Assembly (NCBI GenBank): GCA_025934385.1
Contig: JAICYE010000040.1
Span: 1 to 10,613 of the forward strand
Origin: Acidimicrobiia bacterium
Lineage (GTDB): Bacteria; Actinomycetota; Acidimicrobiia; IMCC26256; BP-133
Direction: 5' to 3'
DNA: 10,613 nt
This document shows, piece by piece, positions 402 to 10,613 of the stretch. How positions within the stretch are numbered: the first letter of the stretch is position 1; each line of letters opens with the position of its first letter. A program made the position numbers and the translations under genes. The notes beneath the pieces were generated by a model that was given only the letters and a program-made list of their open reading frames with translations, was not told the DNA's origin and made no database searches.

Positions 402-1451
402 CTAATCCGGCAGCGGCGCTTCGAAGAGCTCCAGGCCCCGGGCCGGGCGGTAGCCGACTTCGGCGTTGACGGCGATCATGGCCGTGTTGTCGGCGGTGAC
501 CTCGGTGTCGAGCCGGTCGATGCCCCGCTCGGCGGCCCACAGCGCCAGGGCGGCCTTGAGCGCTCGCCCGACCCCGCGGCGGCGAACGCTCCGGCGCACG
601 ACAGTCCAGTCGACGAAGGCGGCGGGGACGAACGCCACCGGCTCGGCGGCCGACGCCCCGAGTACGGCCTTGTCGCCCGGGGGTTCGGGGGTGTCCCCCG
701 AAGTGAACGCGTCACCCTTGCGGCAGGCGACGAGAGTCACGCCGCCGTCCGCGGCCCGGCGCAGCTCGCCGGCCCGCCAGTCCTCGTAGACCGTGGCCGG
801 GAACGGTTCGGTGCTGGGGATGTCGGACCGGCCCTCGTCGTGGACCTCGTGCACCGCCCGGCAGAACGACTCGTCGTCGAATCGGGTGGCCAGCGGCACG
901 ACCTCGACGTCGGACAGCAGCATCTCGGTGAGCCCGGCCCGGTCCAGGCGGCTGACGTCGAGGACGTAGTTCCACCGCAGGGGCTCCTCGGCATCCGACG
1001 GCGAGAAACCCCAGCCCCGGACGACGCCGGCCGAGCGGTCGTCGTCGAGGTCGACGAGGCAGCGGAGCCGCCCGGCGCCGATCGCCTGGGCCCAGACACG
1101 GACCTGTTCGAACAGCAGGCGGCCGATGCCCCGGCCCGTGTACTCGGGGTCGACCTCGATGCCGGCGTAGACGACGCCCGGTTCGGCGACGGGCCCGGAG
1201 CTGGCCTCGAGCGCCCGGCTCGTGGCCACGATCTCGCCGCCGAGCTCGGCCACCAGCCGGATCCAGGGGACGTCGTCCCGCAGCGCCACCCCGGCGGCCC
1301 GACGGGCCCGGAGGGCGGCGACGGTGTCGGCCAGCAGCGGCCGGGCCCGGTTGTGGACCCGGACGATGGCGTCGAGGTCGGAGTCGACCGCCGCCCGGAT
1401 CAGCGGCTTCGCCGGGGTACGGGGGTGTCCCCCGGGATCAGGGGAGGACAA
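402..1451 (-). CDS. Tandem-GNAT N-acetyltransferase
   Basis: Two GNAT folds lie in one chain, the arrangement seen in mycothiol synthase (MshD) and many actinobacterial paralogues. Domain 1 runs over residues about 17-150: it starts PLIRAAVDSDLDAI and has an acetyl-CoA motif A with YTGRGIGRLL at 105-113. Domain 2 runs over about 180-345: SVRRRGVGRALKAAL near 288-301 is its pyrophosphate loop, then a DTEVTADNTAMIAVNAEVGY segment typical of GNAT motif B. The acceptor substrate cannot be told. An insert at residues about 245-268 (SGDTPEPPGD) comes from a palindromic repeat. The start is uncertain: the TTG at 1451 is chosen because upstream codons overlap a better-coding 75-residue ORF. No ATG or GTG lies just before the first strand, and a second repeat copy sits exactly there. 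Fold confidence is high; start confidence is low. Confidence 0.85.
   Translation of the reverse strand: MSSPDPGGHPRTPAKPLIRAAVDSDLDAIVRVHNRARPLLADTVAALRARRAAGVALRDDVPWIRLVAELGGEIVATSRALEASSGPVAEPGVVYAGIEVDPEYTGRGIGRLLFEQVRVWAQAIGAGRLRCLVDLDDDRSAGVVRGWGFSPSDAEEPLRWNYVLDVSRLDRAGLTEMLLSDVEVVPLATRFDDESFCRAVHEVHDEGRSDIPSTEPFPATVYEDWRAGELRRAADGGVTLVACRKGDAFTSGDTPEPPGDKAVLGASAAEPVAFVPAAFVDWTVVRRSVRRRGVGRALKAALALWAAERGIDRLDTEVTADNTAMIAVNAEVGYRPARGLELFEAPLPD
684..702. repeat. GC-rich palindromic repeat, copy 1 (inside acetyltransferase gene)
   Basis: TTCGGGGG-TGT-CCCCCGAA is a perfect palindrome with 8-bp arms and a 3-base centre. With four preceding G bases it shares a 21-base block (680-700) with the copy at 1414-1434, 20 of 21 bases identical. 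On the coding strand it is translated in frame as SGDTPEPP within a surface loop of the second GNAT domain. It looks like a small dispersed repeat of the REP/MITE kind. Copy number in the genome cannot be judged from here. Confidence 0.75.
1414..1434. repeat. GC-rich palindromic repeat, copy 2 (at acetyltransferase start)
   Basis: GGGGTACGGGGGTGTCCCCCG matches copy 1 at 20 of 21 bases. The palindromic core is CGGGGG-TGT-CCCCCG (1420-1434). It lies 3 bp past the stop of the 75-residue ORF and just before the first beta strand of the acetyltransferase, where the start codon would be expected. As RNA it could form a strong hairpin next to the translation start. Confidence 0.75.
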
Positions 1452-1665
1452 GGGCCCGAACCGTGTGGAGGGCCGGATCGATCTCCGCCCGCACCATTCC
1501 CTGCGCCACCGGCGGGGCGCCGCTGCGCCGCACGACCACGCCGATGCCCGCCATCCACGCCACCTTGTTCCCGTCGAGACCAAGCTGAACGTACTGCCCC
1601 AGCCGGTGCAGCATGGGGACCGCGGCCGGCACGAGCCGGTGGAGCGGGAGGAGTCTCGGGCTCAC
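1438..1665 (-). CDS. Small hypothetical protein, 75 aa
   Basis: I do not recognise this protein. The ORF begins with a GTG one base after the stop of the upstream lipoprotein gene (TGA-C-GTG) and ends just before a palindromic repeat. About nine in ten codons end in G or C, as in the neighbouring genes, while the overlapping acetyltransferase frame over the same bases is clearly poorer and Arg/Trp-rich. This ORF is therefore the more likely coding frame here. The protein is mildly hydrophobic and basic, with a central stretch (VAWMAGIGVVVRR) too short to be a sure membrane helix, and has no signal peptide or cysteine. No good Shine-Dalgarno precedes the GTG, so translation would rely on coupling to the upstream gene. 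An internal ATG at 1614 would give a shorter form. Confidence 0.5.
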   Translation of the reverse strand: MSPRLLPLHRLVPAAVPMLHRLGQYVQLGLDGNKVAWMAGIGVVVRRSGAPPVAQGMVRAEIDPALHTVRALVLP

Positions 1666-1666
1666 G

Positions 1667-2704
1667 TCAGCCGGTCGGCCGGCCGCGGTTCTCGAGCAGC
1701 GCCAGGCTGGCCTTCGTCGTGTCGGTCGGCATGTCGACCTTCACGTCGCCGCCGAGGTCCAGAAGGGCGAACTCCATGTCCCGCATCCGGATCGGGTCCT
1801 GCCCCTGGCCGGTGCGGATGGCGTTGAGGGCCTCGACGGCGATGGCGGCCAGCTCGGCCTTCGACCGGTCGGCGGGGAACTTCGTGTCGTAGATCTCCGA
1901 CAGGTCCTTGAGCCGGCTCTCGACGTCGATCTTCTCCACCACCTTGATGACCCGCTTGTCCTTCACGTAGACCGACATCTTCCGGAAGTGGCGGGCGTCG
2001 GGCGTCACCTGGTTGGGGCCGCCGCCGGTCTGCGACGCCTTGGGCAGGTTGGGCCGCTGGAGGTCGTAGCGGGTCACGCCGGAGTGGGCCGCCGGGGCGG
2101 GGAACGGGTCCTCGTCCTTGCGGTACTCGAGGGATTCGGGGTTGAACTCCACCACCCGGGCCGCTTCGTTCATGGCCTGCTCGACGTAGGCGAAGACGTC
2201 GCGGGCGTCGGCGATGGGGTCGCGGCCTGGCGTGTGGTCGGTGTCGGCGGTGGCGAACTCGGCGGGCGCCCCGGCCGGGTCGAGGACCCAACGCCGGGTG
2301 GAGAGCAGCTCCGCCGCCGTCGGCTGGCCGGGAGCGGCACCGCCGGAGCCGCTCGGCCCGGCGTTCGCCGGCTTGCGGAGGAAGCGGTTCATCCGGGTCG
2401 GGTCGAGGAAGCGGACGGCGAGGGCGTCGTCGCTCACGACCTCGTCGAGGACGGGCTTGCCGTCCTCCGCCACCCGGGCCTTGTAGCGGAAGTCGTCCTC
2501 CACCAGGCCGCGGACGTCGGTCTCGTGGTCGCCGGCCGTGTCGTGGACGGTCTCGGTGTAGAGGAACGTGTTCGACAGCTTCTCGGTGTTGTGCAGCGCC
2601 GCCCGCAGCCGCTTCTCGGCGTCGGCGGCATTGTTGCAGGCCGACAGGCCGAGGGTGGCCGCCACCAGCAGCCCGACGAGCACGATGTGACGTCGGCGGT
2701 TCAC
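1667..2704 (-). CDS. Lipoprotein of unknown function, possibly LolA/LprG-like
   Basis: The 345-residue protein starts at a GTG that overlaps the previous gene's stop (GTGA). This start places a compact lipoprotein signal at the N-terminus: basic NRRRH, hydrophobic core, lipobox LSAC with Cys 23. The mature protein begins with a helix (AEKRLRAALHNTEKL) followed by alternating strands (TETVHDTAGDHETDVRG, then DFRYKARVAEDGKPVLDEVV), with two more strands near the C-terminus (KMSVYVKDKRVIKVVEKI; MRDMEFALLDLGGDVKVDMP). This order is reminiscent of the LolA/LppX/LprG half-barrel lipoproteins that carry lipids, but I see no sequence signature that proves it. A low-complexity Gly/Pro/Ser stretch around residue 135 looks like a flexible linker. 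It would be anchored on the outer face of the cytoplasmic membrane. Lipoprotein status is well supported; the fold is a guess. Confidence 0.85.
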   Translation of the reverse strand: MNRRRHIVLVGLLVAATLGLSACNNAADAEKRLRAALHNTEKLSNTFLYTETVHDTAGDHETDVRGLVEDDFRYKARVAEDGKPVLDEVVSDDALAVRFLDPTRMNRFLRKPANAGPSGSGGAAPGQPTAAELLSTRRWVLDPAGAPAEFATADTDHTPGRDPIADARDVFAYVEQAMNEAARVVEFNPESLEYRKDEDPFPAPAAHSGVTRYDLQRPNLPKASQTGGGPNQVTPDARHFRKMSVYVKDKRVIKVVEKIDVESRLKDLSEIYDTKFPADRSKAELAAIAVEALNAIRTGQGQDPIRMRDMEFALLDLGGDVKVDMPTDTTKASLALLENRGRPTG

Positions 2705-3231
2705 GGCTGGATCCGGAGCGTCTGGCGCAGCAGCGTGCGGGGTTGGTCGTAATCGGCCCGGGTGGCCAGCACGAACAGGTACCGGCCCTTGAACCACACG
2801 GCGATCGACTGCTTCGTGCCGGTCGTCAGGTAGACGGTGTCATGCCCGAGGCGGACGGGCCGGGGGGCGGTGGCGCCGATCTGGTTGACCACCGTCCGGC
2901 GGAACGTGTCGGCGTTGACGTCGGCGCCGGGGTTGAACCGGCTGACCTGGAGGGTGGCCATCACGAGGTCGTTGCGCCGCAGGGAGTACAGCGACAGGGC
3001 GTCGACGAAGGCCTTCGGCACCCGGGCCAGGTCGCCGCTCACGTCCTCGGGGGCGAGTTTCAGGCCGAGGAGGTCGGGCGGCAGGTTGGCGATGTCGAGC
3101 GTTTTGACCGCCTTCCCGGGAGTGGGAGCGACCGACGCCTCCGACCGGGTGCAGCCGGCCAGGGCCACGGCCGCGGCCACGGCGGCCAGTACGGCCCCGA
3201 ACGGGCGGAGTCGGCGGAGACCCGTCCTCAC
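2701..3231 (-). CDS. Small lipoprotein of unknown function, 176 aa
   Basis: The GTG start overlaps the stop of the cupredoxin-like gene (GTGA), with GAGGG 10 bases upstream as a ribosome binding site. The signal peptide has a basic n-region (MRTGLRRLRP), an Ala/Val-rich core and lipobox LAGC with Cys 27. The mature part is a single compact domain: a helical segment (PEDVSGDLARVPKAFVDALS), then strands including LVMATLQVSRF, DTVYLTTGTKQSIAVWFKG and RYLFVLATRADY, ending in a helix (PRTLLRQTLRIQP). No catalytic motif or further cysteine is visible. Its place between two other lipoproteins in a coupled operon downstream of a transporter suggests a surface accessory role. I do not recognise a named family. 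Confidence 0.83.
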   Translation of the reverse strand: MRTGLRRLRPFGAVLAAVAAAVALAGCTRSEASVAPTPGKAVKTLDIANLPPDLLGLKLAPEDVSGDLARVPKAFVDALSLYSLRRNDLVMATLQVSRFNPGADVNADTFRRTVVNQIGATAPRPVRLGHDTVYLTTGTKQSIAVWFKGRYLFVLATRADYDQPRTLLRQTLRIQP

Positions 3232-3809
3232 GGTTTGTAAACCCTCAGCTCTCCGGTCACGTAGGGCCGCGTGTCGTCGCTGTAACTGAAGATTCCAACG
3301 GTGCCGGCGGTGTAGTCCCAGTGGGCGCCGGGCTGGATCGTGGGCGAGGCGAACTGGCCGCTGTCGGCCCGGACGGAGCGGGGCACGGTGTCCTTGTTGA
3401 CCCAGCGGATGATCGACCCGACATAGGCGGTCTGCACCTTCGGGTCGAGCGCCTCGTGGCCCGGGTCGTTGTCGCCGTAGATGTCGATCTCCCGGATGGT
3501 CTGCGTGGCGGCCGCCACGGTCGTCGCCGTCGTGGCGCTGGGGGCGCCGGCCGAACGGGCCGTGGTGGCCGTGGCCGCCGGCGCCGACGCCTTCGGCTTC
3601 GTCGTCGTGGTGGCGGCCGACCGGGCGGCCGCGCCCGTGGTCGTCGTGACCGCCGCCGCCGCCGTCGTGGTCGTCTCCCCGAGGCGGTTGTTGGCCTGCT
3701 CCTTGAAGTCGAGCAGCGCCTTGTTGCCCACCTTGTTCTCGCTCCCGCAGGCGCCGAGCGCCACCAGCGCCAGCGCGCTCAGCAGCAGAACCATGGCCCT
3801 TCTCGTCAT
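3228..3809 (-). CDS. Lipoprotein with Thr/Ala linker and degenerate cupredoxin-like domain
   Basis: The 193-residue protein has signal MTRRAMVLLLSALALVALGAC, lipobox LGAC, Cys 21. Residues about 45-104 are a low-complexity Thr/Ala linker with several TTTT runs, probably a surface stalk. Residues about 106-193 look like a plastocyanin/cupredoxin fold: VGSIIRWVNKDTVPRSVRAD matches the usual 'GD.V.W.NKD..PH.V.AD' strand pair, and RPYVTGELRVY matches the 'HPFMTG...V' end. The copper ligands seem absent: His becomes Arg 144, the Cys site has Asp or Ser, the second His becomes Arg 181, and Met becomes Val 184. The domain is therefore unlikely to bind type 1 copper and may be a structural or binding module. 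The ATG overlaps the MFS-ABC stop (ATGA) and has GGGGAG 6 bases upstream. The longer open frame upstream lacks a signal peptide and is rejected. Confidence 0.88.
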   Translation of the reverse strand: MTRRAMVLLLSALALVALGACGSENKVGNKALLDFKEQANNRLGETTTTAAAAVTTTTGAAARSAATTTTKPKASAPAATATTARSAGAPSATTATTVAAATQTIREIDIYGDNDPGHEALDPKVQTAYVGSIIRWVNKDTVPRSVRADSGQFASPTIQPGAHWDYTAGTVGIFSYSDDTRPYVTGELRVYKP

Positions 3810-6787
3810 CGGATGCTCCCCGAACGGTTGACAGCTTCGACGGTCGTCCCCAGGTACGACTCCACCACCCGCTCGTCCTCCAGCACGTCGGCCGGCCGGC
3901 CCCGGGTGACGAACCGGCCCTGGTCGAGGGCGATCAGCTCGTCGGAGACGGCCGAGATGAGCGGCATGTCGTGCTCGATGACGAGGATGGCACACCCCGT
4001 CTCGAAGCGGACCCGGCGCAGCAGCGGCGCCAGCCCTTCGGCCTCGGCCTGGGCGATGCCGGAGCTGGGCTCGTCGAGCAGGAGCACCTGCGGCTCGGTG
4101 GCCAGCACGCAGGCGAGGTCGACGATGCGCCGCAGCCCGGTCGAGAGCTCCTTCACGAACTTGTCGCGGTAGGCGCCGAGCTCGAGCAGCTCGATCAGCT
4201 TCTCGGCCCGCAGCCGCACCCGCTTCTCCGCCCGGCGGGCCTGGGGCAGTTGCGCCGCCGCCAGGATGGCGCTGTGTACTTCGAGGCGCCGGTCCAGCGC
4301 CACCAGCAGCGTCTCGAAGACGGTGAGCGACGGGAAGAGGCGGGCGTCCTGGAAGCGGCGCACCAGCTTGCGGCGGGCCCGCTCCTCGGGCGGGAGGCCG
4401 GTGATGTCGACGCCCTGGTAGCGGACGGCGCCGCCGTCGGGCAGCTGGAATCCGGAGATCAGGTCGAACGTCGTCGTCTTTCCCGATCCGTTGGGGCCGA
4501 TGACGCCGAGCACCTCGCCTTCCCGGACGGCGAAGCTCACGTCGTCGACGGCGGTGATACCGCCGAAGCGCTTGGTGAGATGCTCCACTTCGAGGATGGG
4601 CCGGGACTCACCGAGCTCCAGCGCCCGCCGCTCCCGCTCCGACCGCAGCGCCGAAGCCGGCGCGGCGGTGGTGAGGGCGCCCGTCCCCTTCACGTAGACC
4701 GCCCGGAGGATGTCGGGCCGGGCCAGCAGGTCGGCGGTGGCGCCGAAGAACCTGACCTCGCCCTTCTCCATGAAGATGGCCTTCTCAGCCAGCGTGAGGG
4801 CGACGTTGACCGACTGCTCGACGACGATGACCGTCGTGCCCCGGGCGTGGATCTGCCGCACGACGTCGAGCAGCTGACCGACCACCGCCGGCGAGAGGCC
4901 CAGCGACAGCTCGTCGATCATCAGCAGCCGGGGCCGGGCCAGGAACGCCTGGGCCAGCGACAGCATCTGCTGCTCGCCACCCGACAGGGAGGCCGCCGTC
5001 TCGTCGGCCCGCTCCCGGAGGATGGGGAAGATCCCGAAGACCTCGTCGAGGCGAGTCTGGCGCGCCTCCGCGCCGTCCCCGGAGTTCATCCAGGTCCCGA
5101 GGAGGACGTTCTCCCGCACGGTGAGCCCGGGGAAGATTCCCCGCCCGCCGGGCATGTGGATCACGCCCCGGGCGGCCGTCTCGTGGGGCGGCATGTGGGT
5201 GATGTCCCGCCCGTCGAACACGATGGCCCCGGCCGACGCCTCCTGGGTGCCGCTGATGGCCCGCAGCAGCGTCGACTTGCCGGCGCCGTTGGTGCCGAGC
5301 AGGGCGATGATCTCGCCCTCCTCGACGTCGAAGTCCACGCCGAAGAGCACCTGCCCGCCGTCGTAGGTGACATCGACGTCGCGACAGACGAGCAGCTTGC
5401 CCCGGCCGGCGGCCTTGGCCTCCCGCCAGTCGGCGTCGGCCATGGAAGCGGCGAAGGCGTTGCGCCGGTCGAACTCGAAGAACGACGCCGCCGAGAGGTT
5501 GACCAGCGCCCCCACCACGGCGAACGGGACGCAGAAGAGGATGGCGGCGCTGTAGCCGTACTGCGTCCGCAGCATCCCGGCCATGGGGACGAAGAAGATG
5601 AGCCCGGGGATGGCGGCCAGGCCGAGCATCTGCACGCCCTGGGTCCGCACCACCGGCGGGATGATCTGGGTCGTGATCGCCTGGGCGGCCGGCCCGACGA
5701 GGGCGTAGCCGAAGGTGAGCAGGGCGCTGAAGCCGACCAGCAGCCACAGCGGCGGCAGCGTGGCGGTACCCAGCAGGCCGAGGGCGCCGACGAGCCCGAA
5801 CAAGCCGACGACGACCAGCACCCGCGACGGGTTGACGGCCGACAGGCGGTCGATCAGGGCGCCGCCGACGAAGGCGCCGAGGAGGCCGGCCACGAACGCC
5901 GCCGGCCCCAGGACGGCGAACCGCTCGGTGGCACTGCGCAGCCCGTACTGGTCGACGAGCAGGAACGGCAGCAGCAGAGCGTAGACCGTACCGCCGGGGG
6001 TGGCGACGACAGCGGCGATGAACTGCCGGCGCAACGTGCGGACGGCCCACACCGTCCGCCACGCCTCGCCGAACGACTGCGGCTCGCCCTCCTGGCGGGC
6101 GATGTCCTCGTCGGCGCCCATGGCCCGGCGTTCCATGTAGCCCCGGACCGGCTCCCGCAGCGCCACCAGGATGACGACGCCGGAGGCGGCGACGAGCGCC
6201 CCGCCCACGACGAACGTCGTCCGCCAGCCGAGGCCGTCGATCATCAGCGCCGCCGTCAGCGACAAGGGCAGCGACGCCGTGCGGCCCACGATCCCGAGGA
6301 TGGCGAAGACCTTGCCCCGGCTCTCGGCCGGGTAGTAGTCGGCCAGCAGCGAGAAGCTCGGCACGTCGGAGGCGGCGCCGGCCACACCGCCGAGGACCTC
6401 GGGGGTGCCGAGCATGGCCAGGTTGTGGGCGCCGGCGGTGACCATCCGGAACAGGCCGGAGACGATCGTGCCGAGGCCGAACAGCGGCACCCGGGGGTGG
6501 CGATCGGCGTACCAGCCGAGGGCGATGGCGGCGAAGATCAGGAAGAAGCCGATCGTCGCCTGCACGTTGAGGATGTCGCGGACGTCGATCCGCAGGTCGA
6601 CGACGATGTCGGGCGCGGCCAGGGCGAAGGCCGGGCCGGCCAGCCCGCCGACGAGGCCGAGGAAGGCGAACACCGCCACCGGGCGGGTGCCGTAGGGCGT
6701 GTGGCGGAGATCGGTCCAGTTGCGGGCGACTCCGGCCAGGCCCTTGCGCCCCTGCCCGGGGTCGGGGATGTGGGCCGAGGCGGTCAC
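3806..6787 (-). CDS. MFS transporter fused to LivF-like and LivG-like ABC ATPases, 993 aa
   Basis: Three modules lie in one chain. Residues about 36-437 are an MFS transporter with about 12 hydrophobic segments, a motif A (GWYADRHPRVPLFGLG, 91-106), a weaker second-half copy (GGALIDRLS, 308-316) and a central loop at about 212-250. Residues about 465-700 are a LivF-like ATPase: Walker A GTNGAGKST (498-506), signature LSGGEQQ (601-607), Walker B with D625/E626, then VVEQSV. Residues about 729-980 are a LivG-like ATPase: Walker A GPNGSGKTT (764-772), Q-loop Q813, signature-like LSTGLRR, D905/E906, H939 in VIEHD. An even-helix MFS domain leaves its C-terminus in the cytosol, where the ATPases must be. 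The GTG overlaps the permease stop (GTGA) and has AGGAG 6 bases upstream. ABC1 has Gly 547 where LivF usually has Glu (PEGR). It presumably energises the LivHM-like permease next door. Substrate is unknown. Confidence 0.93.
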   Translation of the reverse strand: MTASAHIPDPGQGRKGLAGVARNWTDLRHTPYGTRPVAVFAFLGLVGGLAGPAFALAAPDIVVDLRIDVRDILNVQATIGFFLIFAAIALGWYADRHPRVPLFGLGTIVSGLFRMVTAGAHNLAMLGTPEVLGGVAGAASDVPSFSLLADYYPAESRGKVFAILGIVGRTASLPLSLTAALMIDGLGWRTTFVVGGALVAASGVVILVALREPVRGYMERRAMGADEDIARQEGEPQSFGEAWRTVWAVRTLRRQFIAAVVATPGGTVYALLLPFLLVDQYGLRSATERFAVLGPAAFVAGLLGAFVGGALIDRLSAVNPSRVLVVVGLFGLVGALGLLGTATLPPLWLLVGFSALLTFGYALVGPAAQAITTQIIPPVVRTQGVQMLGLAAIPGLIFFVPMAGMLRTQYGYSAAILFCVPFAVVGALVNLSAASFFEFDRRNAFAASMADADWREAKAAGRGKLLVCRDVDVTYDGGQVLFGVDFDVEEGEIIALLGTNGAGKSTLLRAISGTQEASAGAIVFDGRDITHMPPHETAARGVIHMPGGRGIFPGLTVRENVLLGTWMNSGDGAEARQTRLDEVFGIFPILRERADETAASLSGGEQQMLSLAQAFLARPRLLMIDELSLGLSPAVVGQLLDVVRQIHARGTTVIVVEQSVNVALTLAEKAIFMEKGEVRFFGATADLLARPDILRAVYVKGTGALTTAAPASALRSERERRALELGESRPILEVEHLTKRFGGITAVDDVSFAVREGEVLGVIGPNGSGKTTTFDLISGFQLPDGGAVRYQGVDITGLPPEERARRKLVRRFQDARLFPSLTVFETLLVALDRRLEVHSAILAAAQLPQARRAEKRVRLRAEKLIELLELGAYRDKFVKELSTGLRRIVDLACVLATEPQVLLLDEPSSGIAQAEAEGLAPLLRRVRFETGCAILVIEHDMPLISAVSDELIALDQGRFVTRGRPADVLEDERVVESYLGTTVEAVNRSGSIR
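3816..3821 (-). promoter_or_regulatory. Shine-Dalgarno GGGGAG for the cupredoxin-like lipoprotein
   Basis: GGGGAG lies 6 bases before the ATG at 3809, inside the last codons of the MFS-ABC gene. It supports the short start that exposes the lipoprotein signal peptide. Confidence 0.7.
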
Positions 6788-9099
6788 GACGCGCTCCTGC
6801 CGGCCGGACCGAAGATCCGGGTGCCGCGGCGGCTCTGGTAGAGGCCGGAGGCCAGGCTGAAACGGGCCTCGGGCGGGAGGGCGGCCAGGCCGCTGTTGCC
6901 CTTGGCCCCGGCCAGCGGGATGAGCCGGCGCTCCAGGGCCTCGGGGTCGTAGTCGGCGAACAGGCTCGGCACGACCATCTGCCGGCGCTGGGCCACGATG
7001 CGCAGGCAGGCATCGCGCAGCTTGGCCACCAGCGACACGAGCCCGCCGGGGGAGACGTACAGCAGCAGCAGCGTCCCGCCCGAGCCGACGAAGCCGGCCA
7101 GCAGCGGCGAATGGACGAAGTAGCGGGTCATGTTGAAGTAGAAGGCGCCGAGCAGCGCGCCGTTGACCGAGCCGATCCCGCCGAGCACGGCGAGGACGAA
7201 GATGTCGACGCTGGCGGCGGCGGCGAAGCTGTCGGGGTTGAGCCCCCGCTGCTGGTGGGCGAAGATCGCCCCGGCGAATCCGGCCAGCGCCCCGGAGAAG
7301 GCGAAGGCGGCCAGCCGCATGCGGACGGCGGCGATGCCGAAGGCGGCGACGTTCTGCTCGCTCTCCCGCATGGCGATCAGCACCCGGCCGAAGCGGCTCT
7401 TGCGGACGTTGACGACGACCACGATCGAGGCCACCAGCGCCGCCACGCAGAGGAAGTACATCGACCGCTCGTCGCCGAAGTCGAAGAAGAGCAGCGTCGG
7501 CCGCTCGACCGCGCCGGGCAGGAGCCAGGCGAAGTAGCGGGGTTCGAACAGCAGCGACCGCACGGCCACGGCGAAGGCGAACGTCGTCACGGCCAGGAAC
7601 AGCCCCCGGATGCGTAGGGCCGGGAGGCCGACGGCAACGGCGAAGGCGGCGGTGAAGACGGCCGCCAGCGGCACGGCCAGCCAGAACGACAGGCCCACCC
7701 GGGCGGTGAGGGCGCCGGCCACGACGGCGCCGACGGCCACGAAGGCGAACTGGCCCAGGCTCACCTGGCCGGCCCAGCCGGTCAGCACCACCAGCGACAG
7801 GGCCACGATGGCGTTGAGGGCGATGACGCCCCCGAGGTTCGTCTGCCCGGTGGAGGCGACGAAGGGGTAGACCACGACGAAGGCCACCCCGAGCCCGACG
7901 AGCACCCGGCGGGTGATGCGGACGGACGGGACCGCCAGCAACTCCTTGGGGATCGGCCGCTGCTCCTCGCTGGCCTGCCAGGCACTGGCCACCTCGTCGC
8001 CGCCCCGGAGCGACTGGCGCTGCTGGACGAGGAGGCCGACGGCGATGACCAGCAGCAGCCCGAGGTCGACCAGCGCCTTGTCCTTGTCGAGAGAGAACTG
8101 CAGCGCCTCCGTGACGACGGAGATGCCGACGGCGGCGAGCACGGTGGTCGGCAGGTTCCGCATGCGGCCGACGACGGCGGCGGCCAGCGCCGGCAGCAGG
8201 ACGCCGGGGGCGAAACCGGCCGCCGCTCCCGGCTGGGTGAGGACGCCGGTGAGGGTCACGCCGGCCCCGCCCAGCAGCCCGGCCAGCGCCCACACCAGCG
8301 TCGACAGCCGGCCGACGCTGATGCCGAGCAGGGCGGCCCGCTCGGTGTTCTCGGCCATGGCCCGCACCGCCACGCCGGAGCGGGTGAAGCGGAAGAATCC
8401 CGCCAGCGCCAGCAGGAGCAGCGCCGCCACCTCGACGGCGAAGACCTCGGAGAAGCCGAACGGAACGCCGTAGCCGCCGACGCGGAAGTGGAAGCCGGCG
8501 AAGGGCAGCAGGTCGTGGAGTGGCCGGGTACCCAGCGTCTGGGTCACCGACAGGGTGTCGGCCCGGGGGAAGAACGGGAGCCGCCCCACGAGATTGGCCG
8601 ACGTCTGCGACAGGAAGCCGGCCACCACGATCGTGACCACGGTGAGCACGAGCCGGGGAGCCCGGAAGAAGCGCCGGACCAGCGACAGGTCGAGGGCCAC
8701 CCCGACCAGCGCCGAGAGTCCGAGCCCGAGCAGGAAGGCCAGGGCGAACGGCACCTTGGTGTACTGCACGAAGTCGAACGTGAGGATGGCGCCGGCTGCG
8801 CCGATGGCCGTCTGGGCGAAGTTGATGACCCGCAGCGTCCGGTAGACGAGGACGATGCCGGCGGCGGTGAGGGCGTTGACGAGGCCGTAGACGAGGCCCC
8901 GGAAGAGGATGGCGGCCGGCGTCCCCCGGCCGGCGCCGCCCGCGCCGGGGAGGATCACCTGGGTGAACAGGGCGATGACCATCACCGCCAGCACCCAGCC
9001 CAGCACGGCCCTCCCGAGCGCCGAAGCAACGCCGGGCCGAAGGGGGCCTCGATCGGCGCGGCGCCGGTCGTTGCTGAGGTGCGAGCTGGCCCCGTTCAC
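6784..9099 (-). CDS. Fused LivH-LivM-type ABC transporter permease, 771 aa
   Basis: Both permease halves of a branched-chain-amino-acid-type (HAAT) ABC transporter are in one protein. Residues about 30-360 are LivH-like, with the hallmark TLRVINFAQTAIGAAGA (88-104) and a coupling loop FTRSGVAVRAMAENTERAALLGI (238-260). Residues about 395-690 are LivM-like, with GWAGQVSLGQFAFVAVGA (441-458), ALRIRGLFLAVTTFAFA (494-510) and coupling loop RFGRVLIAMRESEQNVAAFGI (569-589). About 80 residues follow as a soluble, probably cytosolic tail (YDPEALERRLIPLA near 717-730) that ordinary LivM lacks. Separate LivH and LivM proteins are each about 300 residues, so the length fits a fusion plus tail. The GTG start overlaps the upstream lipoprotein stop (GTGA) and has AGGGAG 7 bases upstream. 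Its ATPases are on the next gene, fused to MFS. No binding protein is in the window, so 'amino acid' specificity is only a family default. Confidence 0.93.
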   Translation of the reverse strand: MNGASSHLSNDRRRADRGPLRPGVASALGRAVLGWVLAVMVIALFTQVILPGAGGAGRGTPAAILFRGLVYGLVNALTAAGIVLVYRTLRVINFAQTAIGAAGAILTFDFVQYTKVPFALAFLLGLGLSALVGVALDLSLVRRFFRAPRLVLTVVTIVVAGFLSQTSANLVGRLPFFPRADTLSVTQTLGTRPLHDLLPFAGFHFRVGGYGVPFGFSEVFAVEVAALLLLALAGFFRFTRSGVAVRAMAENTERAALLGISVGRLSTLVWALAGLLGGAGVTLTGVLTQPGAAAGFAPGVLLPALAAAVVGRMRNLPTTVLAAVGISVVTEALQFSLDKDKALVDLGLLLVIAVGLLVQQRQSLRGGDEVASAWQASEEQRPIPKELLAVPSVRITRRVLVGLGVAFVVVYPFVASTGQTNLGGVIALNAIVALSLVVLTGWAGQVSLGQFAFVAVGAVVAGALTARVGLSFWLAVPLAAVFTAAFAVAVGLPALRIRGLFLAVTTFAFAVAVRSLLFEPRYFAWLLPGAVERPTLLFFDFGDERSMYFLCVAALVASIVVVVNVRKSRFGRVLIAMRESEQNVAAFGIAAVRMRLAAFAFSGALAGFAGAIFAHQQRGLNPDSFAAAASVDIFVLAVLGGIGSVNGALLGAFYFNMTRYFVHSPLLAGFVGSGGTLLLLYVSPGGLVSLVAKLRDACLRIVAQRRQMVVPSLFADYDPEALERRLIPLAGAKGNSGLAALPPEARFSLASGLYQSRRGTRIFGPAGRSAS
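6794..6798 (-). promoter_or_regulatory. Shine-Dalgarno AGGAG deciding the MFS-ABC start
   Basis: AGGAG lies 6 bases upstream of the GTG at 6787, inside the last codons of the permease gene. The frame stays open for about 500 codons further upstream without resembling protein. This site and the GTGA overlap therefore fix the start. Confidence 0.75.
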
Positions 9100-10334
9100 T
9101 TCGCTGCTCCCTGGTGCGGCGGCGCCGGCAGCGGGGACGGCTGCAGCTGTCCCAGCGAGAGGGTGACGTCGGTGGTGCCCTGGGCCGTGGTGGCGTGGAC
9201 CGCCTCGCTGATGATGATGCCGCCGAGCTGGGGGGCGACGATGTAGCGGTAGGTGCGGGGCGGGGCGGTCTGGCCGGCGCCGGAGAACGTCTGCGTCGCC
9301 TCCACGGCCCAGCCGTCGACCATCTCGCCGCAGGCGTCCACCCGTTCCCGCTTCACCACCTTGGCCTGGTGCTGCAGCACCGAACCGGTCCGGGGATCGA
9401 TGCCGACGGCGTTCCACTCCTCGCCGGGGACGATCTGCAGCGGCAGGTACAGCACGCCGGGCGAGAAGGTGAGCTCGCTGGAGTTGCCGGCGGAATCGAC
9501 CCGCTGGAGCTTGACCAGCGAGATGCCGCGCTCGGGGTCGCCGACCGAGAGCGTCTCGGGGACGGGGGCCTTCGGCAACGCCGGCTGCGTGCCCGGCACC
9601 TGGGCCGGCAGCGGAACGGTCACGGGCGGGTGGTTCGGGTCGGCGTCGACCGGCGGCGTGACCGTCTGCGACACGGCACCGGTCCTGACCTTGAACGTGC
9701 TGATCGTCGTGACGTCGCTGCCGAGCTCCGGCTGGACGGTCTCGAAGGTGTACTCCGTGGCCGACACCCGCACCACGTTGCGGACGAGGCGGGCTTCGAA
9801 CCCCGCCACCGGTAGCTTGACGCCGGGGAGGTTGGCCAGCGTCTGCGTCCCCGTCCGCTTCCAGCGGTACTGGCCCACGGCCGGGACACCCTCCACCGTG
9901 AGGCCGGCCTCCTTGGCCGGGAAGGCGGTGAGGGCGGCCGGCGGGCACGGTGCGCGCGGCGGGTTGAGCGGCGTCACCGGCCGGAGCCGGCCCCGTCCGG
10001 GCCCGGAGTCGAAGTCCCCGTCGTCGGATGCCTCGGACCCGGCGCCGCCGGCGGCGGCGGACGCCGGCCCGGGAACGTACGTCGTGGCCTCGCCCGGCCG
10101 GACCTGTCCCGGGGCGAGGTTCGGCGGCAGCGGGACCCCCGTCTTCGCCCCGAAGACGATGTCGGCGGCGAGCTTCTGCACCCCGACCCCCGGCGCCCCC
10201 TGGTTGACACATCCGGCGAGCAGAAGAGTGGCAACGCCGGCCAAGGCCCGCCGCCCCGCAAACCGGCGTTCATGTACCGGCCCATGAGCAGAAAACGAAC
10301 GCCGGTTCGAGCGCGGCGACGGCCACCATTCCAA
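9096..10334 (-). CDS. Proline-rich lipoprotein upstream of transporter genes
   Basis: The protein carries RRFAGRRALAGVATLLLAGC, a standard lipoprotein signal with lipobox LAGC. The mature part opens with a Pro/Gly/Ala-rich region of about 100 residues. Two beta-rich segments follow, separated by another proline-rich stretch: YRWKRTGTQTL...TFKVRTGAVSQT, then LPLQIVPGEEWN...TYRYIVAPQLGGIIISE. The second vaguely recalls DUF3108-like domains. Two cysteines remain (APCPPA and VDACGEM) and could form a disulfide. The start is unclear. In-frame options are GTG 10400 (overlaps the upstream gene), TTG 10334 (used here) and TTG 10244 (leaves only 11 residues before the Cys). An ATG at 10273 is one base out of frame. 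Its stop overlaps the permease start (GTGA), so it probably leads the operon. It is not a type I periplasmic binding protein, and its function is unknown. Confidence 0.82.
   Translation of the reverse strand: MEWWPSPRSNRRSFSAHGPVHERRFAGRRALAGVATLLLAGCVNQGAPGVGVQKLAADIVFGAKTGVPLPPNLAPGQVRPGEATTYVPGPASAAAGGAGSEASDDGDFDSGPGRGRLRPVTPLNPPRAPCPPAALTAFPAKEAGLTVEGVPAVGQYRWKRTGTQTLANLPGVKLPVAGFEARLVRNVVRVSATEYTFETVQPELGSDVTTISTFKVRTGAVSQTVTPPVDADPNHPPVTVPLPAQVPGTQPALPKAPVPETLSVGDPERGISLVKLQRVDSAGNSSELTFSPGVLYLPLQIVPGEEWNAVGIDPRTGSVLQHQAKVVKRERVDACGEMVDGWAVEATQTFSGAGQTAPPRTYRYIVAPQLGGIIISEAVHATTAQGTTDVTLSLGQLQPSPLPAPPHQGAAK
9107..9112 (-). promoter_or_regulatory. Shine-Dalgarno AGGGAG deciding the permease start
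   Basis: AGGGAG lies 7 bases before the GTG at 9099, within the end of the lipoprotein gene. The open frame runs on upstream to 10212 but reads as shadow sequence there, so this is the likely start. Confidence 0.7.
10261..10307. repeat. 47-bp inverted-repeat unit 1
   Basis: Perfect 11-bp arms AACCGGCGTTC (10261-10271) and GAACGCCGGTT (10297-10307) flank a 25-base centre that includes AGCAGAAAAC. A second unit of the same size and layout starts 72 bp further right. It lies at the 5' end of, or just before, the lipoprotein gene. The centre is longer than in a normal terminator and no U-tract follows, so an operator, a structured leader or a dispersed palindromic repeat are the main options. 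Confidence 0.75.
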
Positions 10335-10383: not shown

Positions 10384-10613
10384 TCAGGCCACCGCAGCAC
10401 GGTCGGACTCCTTCGGGGGACGGGCGGCGGCGGCCCGGCGCTCGGCGCGGGTCGGCCGGCGGAGGAACTGGGCCAGTTCCGGGGCGTAGGGGTGGCGCAG
10501 CGACAGGCGGGAGACGACGGCGATGGCCCGCACCGGTGCCGGGTGGGCCTGGGCCAGGCGGCGGCGCAACGCCCTGGCCAGTTCCTCCGTCATCGCCGCC
10601 AGTTCGGGCGTGA
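10384..10613 (-). CDS. Unidentified gene, C-terminal part (5' end outside window)
   Basis: The frame is open to the right edge and stops with TGA at 10384. About 75 residues are visible, reading TPELAAMTEELARALRRRLA at the edge and ending PPKESDRAAVA. An ATG at 10593 could start a 69-residue protein, but the residues before it continue the same amphipathic helix, so this is more likely the tail of a longer protein. The composition is Arg/Ala/Leu-rich and helical, with one motif-like piece (LSLRHPYAPELAQFLRRPT). I do not recognise a family. It is on the same strand as the transporter operon, with the repeat-containing spacer between them, so co-transcription is possible but not shown. Confidence 0.5.
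   Translation of the reverse strand, partial: TPELAAMTEELARALRRRLAQAHPAPVRAIAVVSRLSLRHPYAPELAQFLRRPTRAERRAAAARPPKESDRAAVA

What the first reader, a model, noticed from the sequence alone, without database searches (positions are those of the whole stretch)
3806..6787. MFS domain fused to two Liv-type ABC ATPases in one polypeptide
Residues 36-437 form a full MFS-like transporter and residues 465-980 two complete ATPases of LivF and LivG type, with no stop or frameshift between them. A junction linker of about 25 residues (5396-5470) joins them. Secondary carriers and ABC ATPases normally belong to unrelated transport mechanisms. Here the MFS module may be a second translocation path, a regulator, or a scaffold for the LivHM-like permease next door. 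The 4-base overlap with the permease gene argues against an assembly artefact. I cannot tell whether this architecture has been described experimentally.
Basis: partly seen in the sequence, partly recalled or inferred. Interest (0 to 1): 0.78.

Follow-up and report, generated by a model that had tools for sequence, protein, structure and literature searches.

The report
Spinster-type MFS domain built into ABC importer
An actinobacterial gene fuses a twelve-helix carrier of the Spinster lipid-transporter fold to both ATP-burning motors of an amino-acid-type ABC importer; the fusion recurs in related bacteria, and in this lineage the carrier part has lost residues that a Spinster relative uses to sense protons, so it looks like a carrier turned into a part of another machine.

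The parts
3806..6787 (-). MFS-LivF-LivG fusion gene, 993 aa
5477..6682 (-). Spinster-type MFS domain, residues 36-437
6638..6640 (-). A50: site of the TM1 acid (HnSpns D41), lost here
6398..6400 (-). E130: site of the TM4 arginine (HnSpns R122), lost here
6491..6505 (-). motif A D95-R96..R99 (HnSpns D87..R91), kept
6338..6340 (-). D150 (HnSpns D142), kept
6140..6145 (-). R215-G216 in loop 6-7 (HnSpns R233/G234 latch), kept
6026..6028 (-). R254 at the start of TM7: 74 of 74 triple fusions, 12 of 22 MFS-LivF, 1 of 11 unfused rows
5396..5470 (-). junction, residues 440-464, predicted helix of nearly fixed length
4685..5398 (-). LivF-type ATPase, residues 464-701
   Evidence: Q-loop segment E->G
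3845..4606 (-). LivG-type ATPase, residues 728-981
6784..9099 (-). LivH-LivM fused permease, 771 aa; GTGA overlap with the fusion gene
9096..10244 (-). lipoprotein (382 aa in the protein database, P0160), directly upstream of the permease, GTGA overlap; beta-rich model
3228..3809 (-). lipoprotein, cupredoxin-like by eye only, ATGA overlap with the fusion gene
2701..3231 (-). lipoprotein conserved downstream in the window's clade, GTGA overlap
1667..2704 (-). lipoprotein conserved downstream in the window's clade; start inferred from the GTGA overlap

Best explanation
A two-polypeptide ABC importer of the Liv (HAAT) kind: permease LivH-LivM, and ATPases LivF-LivG joined in one chain. Its LivF ATPase carries a Spinster-fold MFS domain at its N-terminus, joined through a predicted helix. 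The MFS is an accessory membrane domain of the ABC complex. In the window's lineage it has lost the proton-switch pair of Spns carriers but keeps the cytoplasmic latch (motif A, D150, loop 6-7), so it most likely no longer runs as an independent proton-coupled carrier; it holds the ATPases at the membrane and/or passes a ligand or lipid signal through loop 6-7 and the helix to LivF. Shown by computation: fusion, conservation, Spns fold, residue losses, conserved linker length, permease partnership. Inferred: physical complex, loss of proton transport, scaffold/regulator role. Substrate unknown.
For: Permease directly upstream in 72 of 72. LivG is fused either to LivF or to the permease (10 of 12 MFS-LivF loci) while the MFS stays on LivF in the loci seen: a Rosetta-stone sign of one complex. 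HnSpns and Spns1/2 are the best matches. Acid at 50 in 63 of 74 triple fusions, 11 of 22 MFS-LivF, 11 of 11 unfused rows; of 22 rows without it 20 also lack Arg/Lys at 130; independent pairs 7-8 of 9 the same way, 0 opposite, p 0.008-0.016. D95, R99, D150, R215, G216 in 74 of 74 triple fusions. R254 in 74 of 74 triple fusions, 12 of 22 MFS-LivF, 1 of 11 unfused rows (L080, which nests among triple fusions). Junction 24-27 residues in 93 of 103 against 21-82 for the LivF-LivG linker; helix 434-459 in the model.
Against: Most triple fusions (63 of 74) keep the TM1 acid, so a working carrier is likely elsewhere in the family; losing a proton switch does not exclude facilitated or lipid transport. 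Four of ten further unfused relatives lack the TM4 arginine too, though not the acid, so loss of that residue is not peculiar to fusions. Six genes do without the MFS, so it is dispensable to the ABC core. The MFS-LivF clade has lost parts of the latch (D95 and R215 each in 7 of 22 rows) and half of it lacks R254. Nine of 103 rows have a junction shorter by nine residues. No coordinates or interdomain confidence were seen; a complex with the permease was not modelled.
Confidence: 0.55

Rival explanations
1. Two working transporters on one chain: the MFS is an active secondary carrier that handles the same or a related substrate (antiport, efflux of a product, lipid movement) next to the importer, tethered for proximity and equal dose.
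For: 63 of 74 triple fusions keep the TM1 acid and 65 of 74 the TM4 Arg/Lys; motif A intact; Spns kin are carriers.
Against: The pair is lost together repeatedly among fused proteins, the window included; the near-fixed junction length and R254 suggest more than a loose tether.
Confidence: 0.27
2. A fusion for joint expression only, without functional coupling between MFS and ATPases.
For: Adjacent genes often fuse (general knowledge); the MFS is missing in six genes.
Against: A free linker should vary in length as the LivF-LivG linker does, but it mostly does not; a second arrangement keeps MFS on LivF; L097/P0159 look like a separate fusion event.
Confidence: 0.13
3. Assembly or gene-calling artefact.
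For: The window is a short contig.
Against: Same junction in many independent assemblies.
Confidence: 0.01

Closest known systems
Liv/HAAT-type ABC importers (LivFGHMJ; UrtABCDE)
   Same: LivF- and LivG-type ATPases, LivH/LivM permease
   Different: Components fused two by two; extra 12-TM MFS domain on LivF; VPEGR -> PGG in LivF; no binding-protein-like gene on the same strand near L001-L007, one on the opposite strand between the two copies L005 and L003
Spinster (Spns) MFS transporters, HnSpns and human SPNS1/2
   Same: Fold, motif A, D142 and R233/G234 equivalents
   Different: D41 and R122 equivalents lost in the window; R254 added; C-terminal ATPases
MFS carriers with C-terminal regulatory domains (CBS, CNBD, PAS, UspA; surveys by Willson et al. 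2019, known only through passages of PMC10710835)
   Same: A soluble domain fused C-terminally to an MFS
   Different: Here the fused part is the motor pair of another transporter class; the surveys are not held and may list it

Membership tests
HAAT (Liv-type) ABC importer | LivF-type and LivG-type ATPases with Walker A, signature and Walker B | tested here: met
   the LivG signature reads LSTG and the LivF H-loop Gln (the latter in all 123 LivF rows)
HAAT (Liv-type) ABC importer | BPD_transp_2 permeases LivH and LivM | tested here: met
   two stretches in 771 aa; LivM- and LivH-type matches, below the equivalog cut-offs
HAAT (Liv-type) ABC importer | Peripla_BP_6-type binding protein in the locus | tested here: inconclusive
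   none seen in the 10.6-kb window nor on the same strand near L001-L007; one opposite-strand gene between L005 and L003; same-strand in 59 of 72 genes of the wider family; no whole genome held
Spinster (Spns) transporter | 12-TM MFS fold closest to Spns | tested here: met
Spinster (Spns) transporter | motif A, D142 and loop 6-7 R233/G234 | tested here: met
   D95/R96/R99, D150, R215/G216
Spinster (Spns) transporter | TM1 Asp41 and TM4 Arg122 (RxxxG) proton switch | tested here: not met
   A50 and E130 in the window; both kept in 11 of 11 unfused rows; acid in 10 of 10 and base in 6 of 10 further unfused relatives
Spinster (Spns) transporter | proton-coupled lipid/solute transport | not testable with these tools
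   needs an assay

The most novel reading that the evidence does not exclude
A hybrid machine in which the LivF ATPase has taken over the MFS from the proton gradient: with the proton switch removed and loop 6-7 and TM12 held stiffly on the ATPase, ATP binding and hydrolysis at LivF/LivG would drive or gate the MFS's alternating access, so that one motor pair serves two unrelated membrane pathways.
Probability: 0.12. Interest if true: 0.92.

Novelty: new variant of a known kind. Interest (0 to 1): 0.62.

Why it matters
Secondary carriers and ABC motors are taught as separate transport classes. A conserved fusion of the two, with natural variants that keep or lose the carrier's proton switch, rearrange the ATPases or lack the MFS altogether, makes it testable whether an ABC motor can control, use or replace the energy source of an MFS fold. 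It also gives a reason not to annotate these genes simply as 'MFS transporter', as several public records do.

Tried and rejected
Assembly error: rejected. MFS-less genes as the ancestral state: the LivF tree rooted on canonical LivF rows places them inside the fusions (quick tree, many open forks, root branch support 49; one of the 27 'canonical' rows, from L032, is the fusion's own LivF and sits on the wrong side). One search labelled 8 rows MFS-less; L029:1-1764 (cut by the locus edge; a tail of the MFS is present) and L077 (cut at the contig start) were dropped, leaving 6. L080 is an unfused MFS nested among triple fusions, counted with the unfused rows; it may be a broken fusion. Dropped before the MFS tree: P0131, P0150, P0153 and P0154; by their ends P0131 and P0150 are fragments; both have R254, and P0131 has Leu at site 50 with Arg at 130. 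Other short hits (such as P0123, P0124, P0128-P0130) are fragments by their ends and were not entered as unfused. Four near-duplicate loci (L034, L048, L051, L054) were left out of the ATPase alignment (76 of 80 genes plus the window). For A5, 42 of the 120 proteins listed and 60 loci were used. rows include the window twice (window and P0001) and truncated rows. Of the unfused frames listed, ten new ones were scored (L122 is the gene of L091); L132, L133, L142 and L151 fell under my E-value cut there, and some listed matches had no locus. One search scored at most 6 candidates a genome and its sample includes G001 and G007, known beforehand to carry the fusion.

Full report
WHAT IS THERE. The gene 6787..3806 (minus strand, GTG start) encodes 993 aa without interruption. 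Pfam sees MFS_1 and two ABC_tran stretches; NCBIfam places the first ATPase with UrtE/LivF and the second with LivG. The permease gene 9099..6784 (two BPD_transp_2 stretches) overlaps it by 4 bases. The same kind of 4-base overlap joins lipoprotein/permease, fusion/next lipoprotein and the two genes after it, so this looks like one translationally coupled operon (inference). At the window's right edge, 10384-10611 (minus) resembles the C-terminus of the TgpA-like transglutaminase found at this place in L004, L006 and L007 (by eye).

REAL AND RECURRENT. A protein search listed 120 of 1645 hits; 115 cover at least 94% of the query at 60-94% identity, 5 are partial. They hold 80 double-ATPase genes: 72 with the MFS, 6 without, 2 cut. 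For 72 of the 80 the upstream side could be tested, and all 72 have the LivHM-like permease directly upstream. In 59 of these 72 a binding-protein-like gene lies near on the same strand; it does not for L001-L007 (the window's clade), L009, L020, L030, L038, L042, L048, though L030 and L042 have one further off and L003/L005 one on the opposite strand between the two copies. Pfam Peripla_BP_6 was met by only 7 of 59 neighbouring genes scanned. In a sample of Actinomycetota, 16 of 296 genomes matched the MFS profile at E<=1e-40, two of them (G001, G007) known beforehand; 41 of 43 matches lie in open frames of 733 aa or more (at most 6 candidates scored a genome, frames not each checked).

ARCHITECTURES. 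Fetched loci show (a) permease + MFS-LivF-LivG; (b) MFS-LivF + permease-LivG, 10 of 12 loci, the other two (L085, L086) with LivG as a separate gene; (c) permease + LivF-LivG without MFS, six genes, with no other MFS-family gene in those loci except the separate fusion in L061; (d) unfused MFS relatives. In these loci the MFS sits on LivF only. The rooted LivF tree puts (c) inside (a) (support 99, with three fused rows), so the MFS was probably lost there. In the MFS tree L097 and P0159 (type b) fall among unfused MFS (98), and their LivF forms its own branch (100), suggesting a second fusion event; these are quick trees, to be taken with care.

PATTERN OF LOSS. On 107 rows: acid at 50 in 63 of 74 triple fusions, 11 of 22 MFS-LivF, 11 of 11 unfused; Arg/Lys at 130 in 65, 11 and 11. 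Of 22 rows without the acid, 20 lack the base. The best tree needs 10 changes for the acid and 8 for the base; independent pairs agree 7-8 of 9, none opposite, p 0.008-0.016. D95, R99, D150, R215 and G216 are kept in 74 of 74 triple fusions, but D95 and R215 are each lost in 7 of 22 MFS-LivF rows. R254 is in 74 of 74, 12 of 22, and 1 of 11 (L080, which nests among fusions). Ten further unfused relatives keep an acid at 50 in 10 of 10 and have no R254, but four of them lack the arginine at 130, so that residue is not universal in unfused kin. In the wider set (210 rows, fragments and the window's duplicate included) acid and base are both present in 118, both missing in 62 (some truncated), one only in 30.

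COUPLING. Between D440 and L466 there are 25 residues in 84 of 103 fused rows, 24-27 in 93, 16 in 9, 30 in 1; the LivF-LivG linker runs from 21 to 82. The model shows one helix 434-459 there, mean pLDDT 85-86 at 441-460. Relative placement of MFS and ATPases was not assessed. The ATPase pair resembles the twin ATPase DppD of ATP-bound DppABCD (TM 0.71 by target length).

ATPASES. From the sequence and the invariant columns: the LivF part has Walker A, LSGGE, D625-E626, and Gln658 at the H-loop (Gln in all 123 LivF rows); the LivG part has Walker A, Q813, LSTG, D905-E906, H939. By established knowledge of ABC dimers one composite site is thus canonical and one degenerate (inference). In LivF, the acid of the VPEGR segment is Gly in 69 of 69 triple, 6 of 6 MFS-less and 19 of 21 MFS-LivF rows, against Glu in 25 of 27 rows taken as canonical; both exceptions come from L032, one being its fusion itself. 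This marks the whole subfamily and does not depend on the MFS.

STATUS. Automatic annotation already names both halves ('ATPase component/MFS family permease'), but no paper describing the fusion was found in the searches made (listed under Tried and rejected). New variant of a known kind.

Noticed in passing
10384-10611 (-) and L004:800-4435, L006, L007: DUF58 (L004) and TgpA-like transglutaminase genes lie upstream of the lipoprotein-permease-fusion operon in the window's clade.
   Followed up: partly
3228-3809 (-): Lipoprotein, cupredoxin-like by eye, without an evident copper ligand set; relatives in L004, L005, L007, L036.
   Followed up: no
9096-10244 (-): Lipoprotein family (140 relatives with E<=0.001) without Pfam match; beta-rich model, weak likeness to YmcC, LmcA, LolA.
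   Followed up: partly
L083, L084, L088-L090, L093-L097: MFS-LivF next to a permease-LivG fusion, a rearranged form of the same transporter.
   Followed up: yes
L003/L005/L032; genomes G002, G008, G009: Several paralogous copies per genome: three in one 285-kb contig, 8-11 MFS-profile matches at E<=1e-20 in some genomes, fragments counted.
   Followed up: no
L051, L047, L060: Records titled Bifidobacterium breve, Thermoanaerobacterales and Chloroflexi carry copies that group with Actinomycetota ones (L047, L060; L051 near L053 in layout); probably mislabelled or mis-binned, not tested.
   Followed up: no
L080:941-2455: An unfused MFS nested among the triple fusions, no ATPase found on its 4-kb contig: a secondary split or a broken copy.
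   Followed up: partly
402-1583 (-): Gene with two GNAT acetyltransferase stretches, also beside the operon in L036.
   Followed up: no
L005:16109-17989 (-), the same gene as L003:322-2202 (-): Binding-protein-like gene on the opposite strand between two tandem copies of the system in the window's clade.
   Followed up: no
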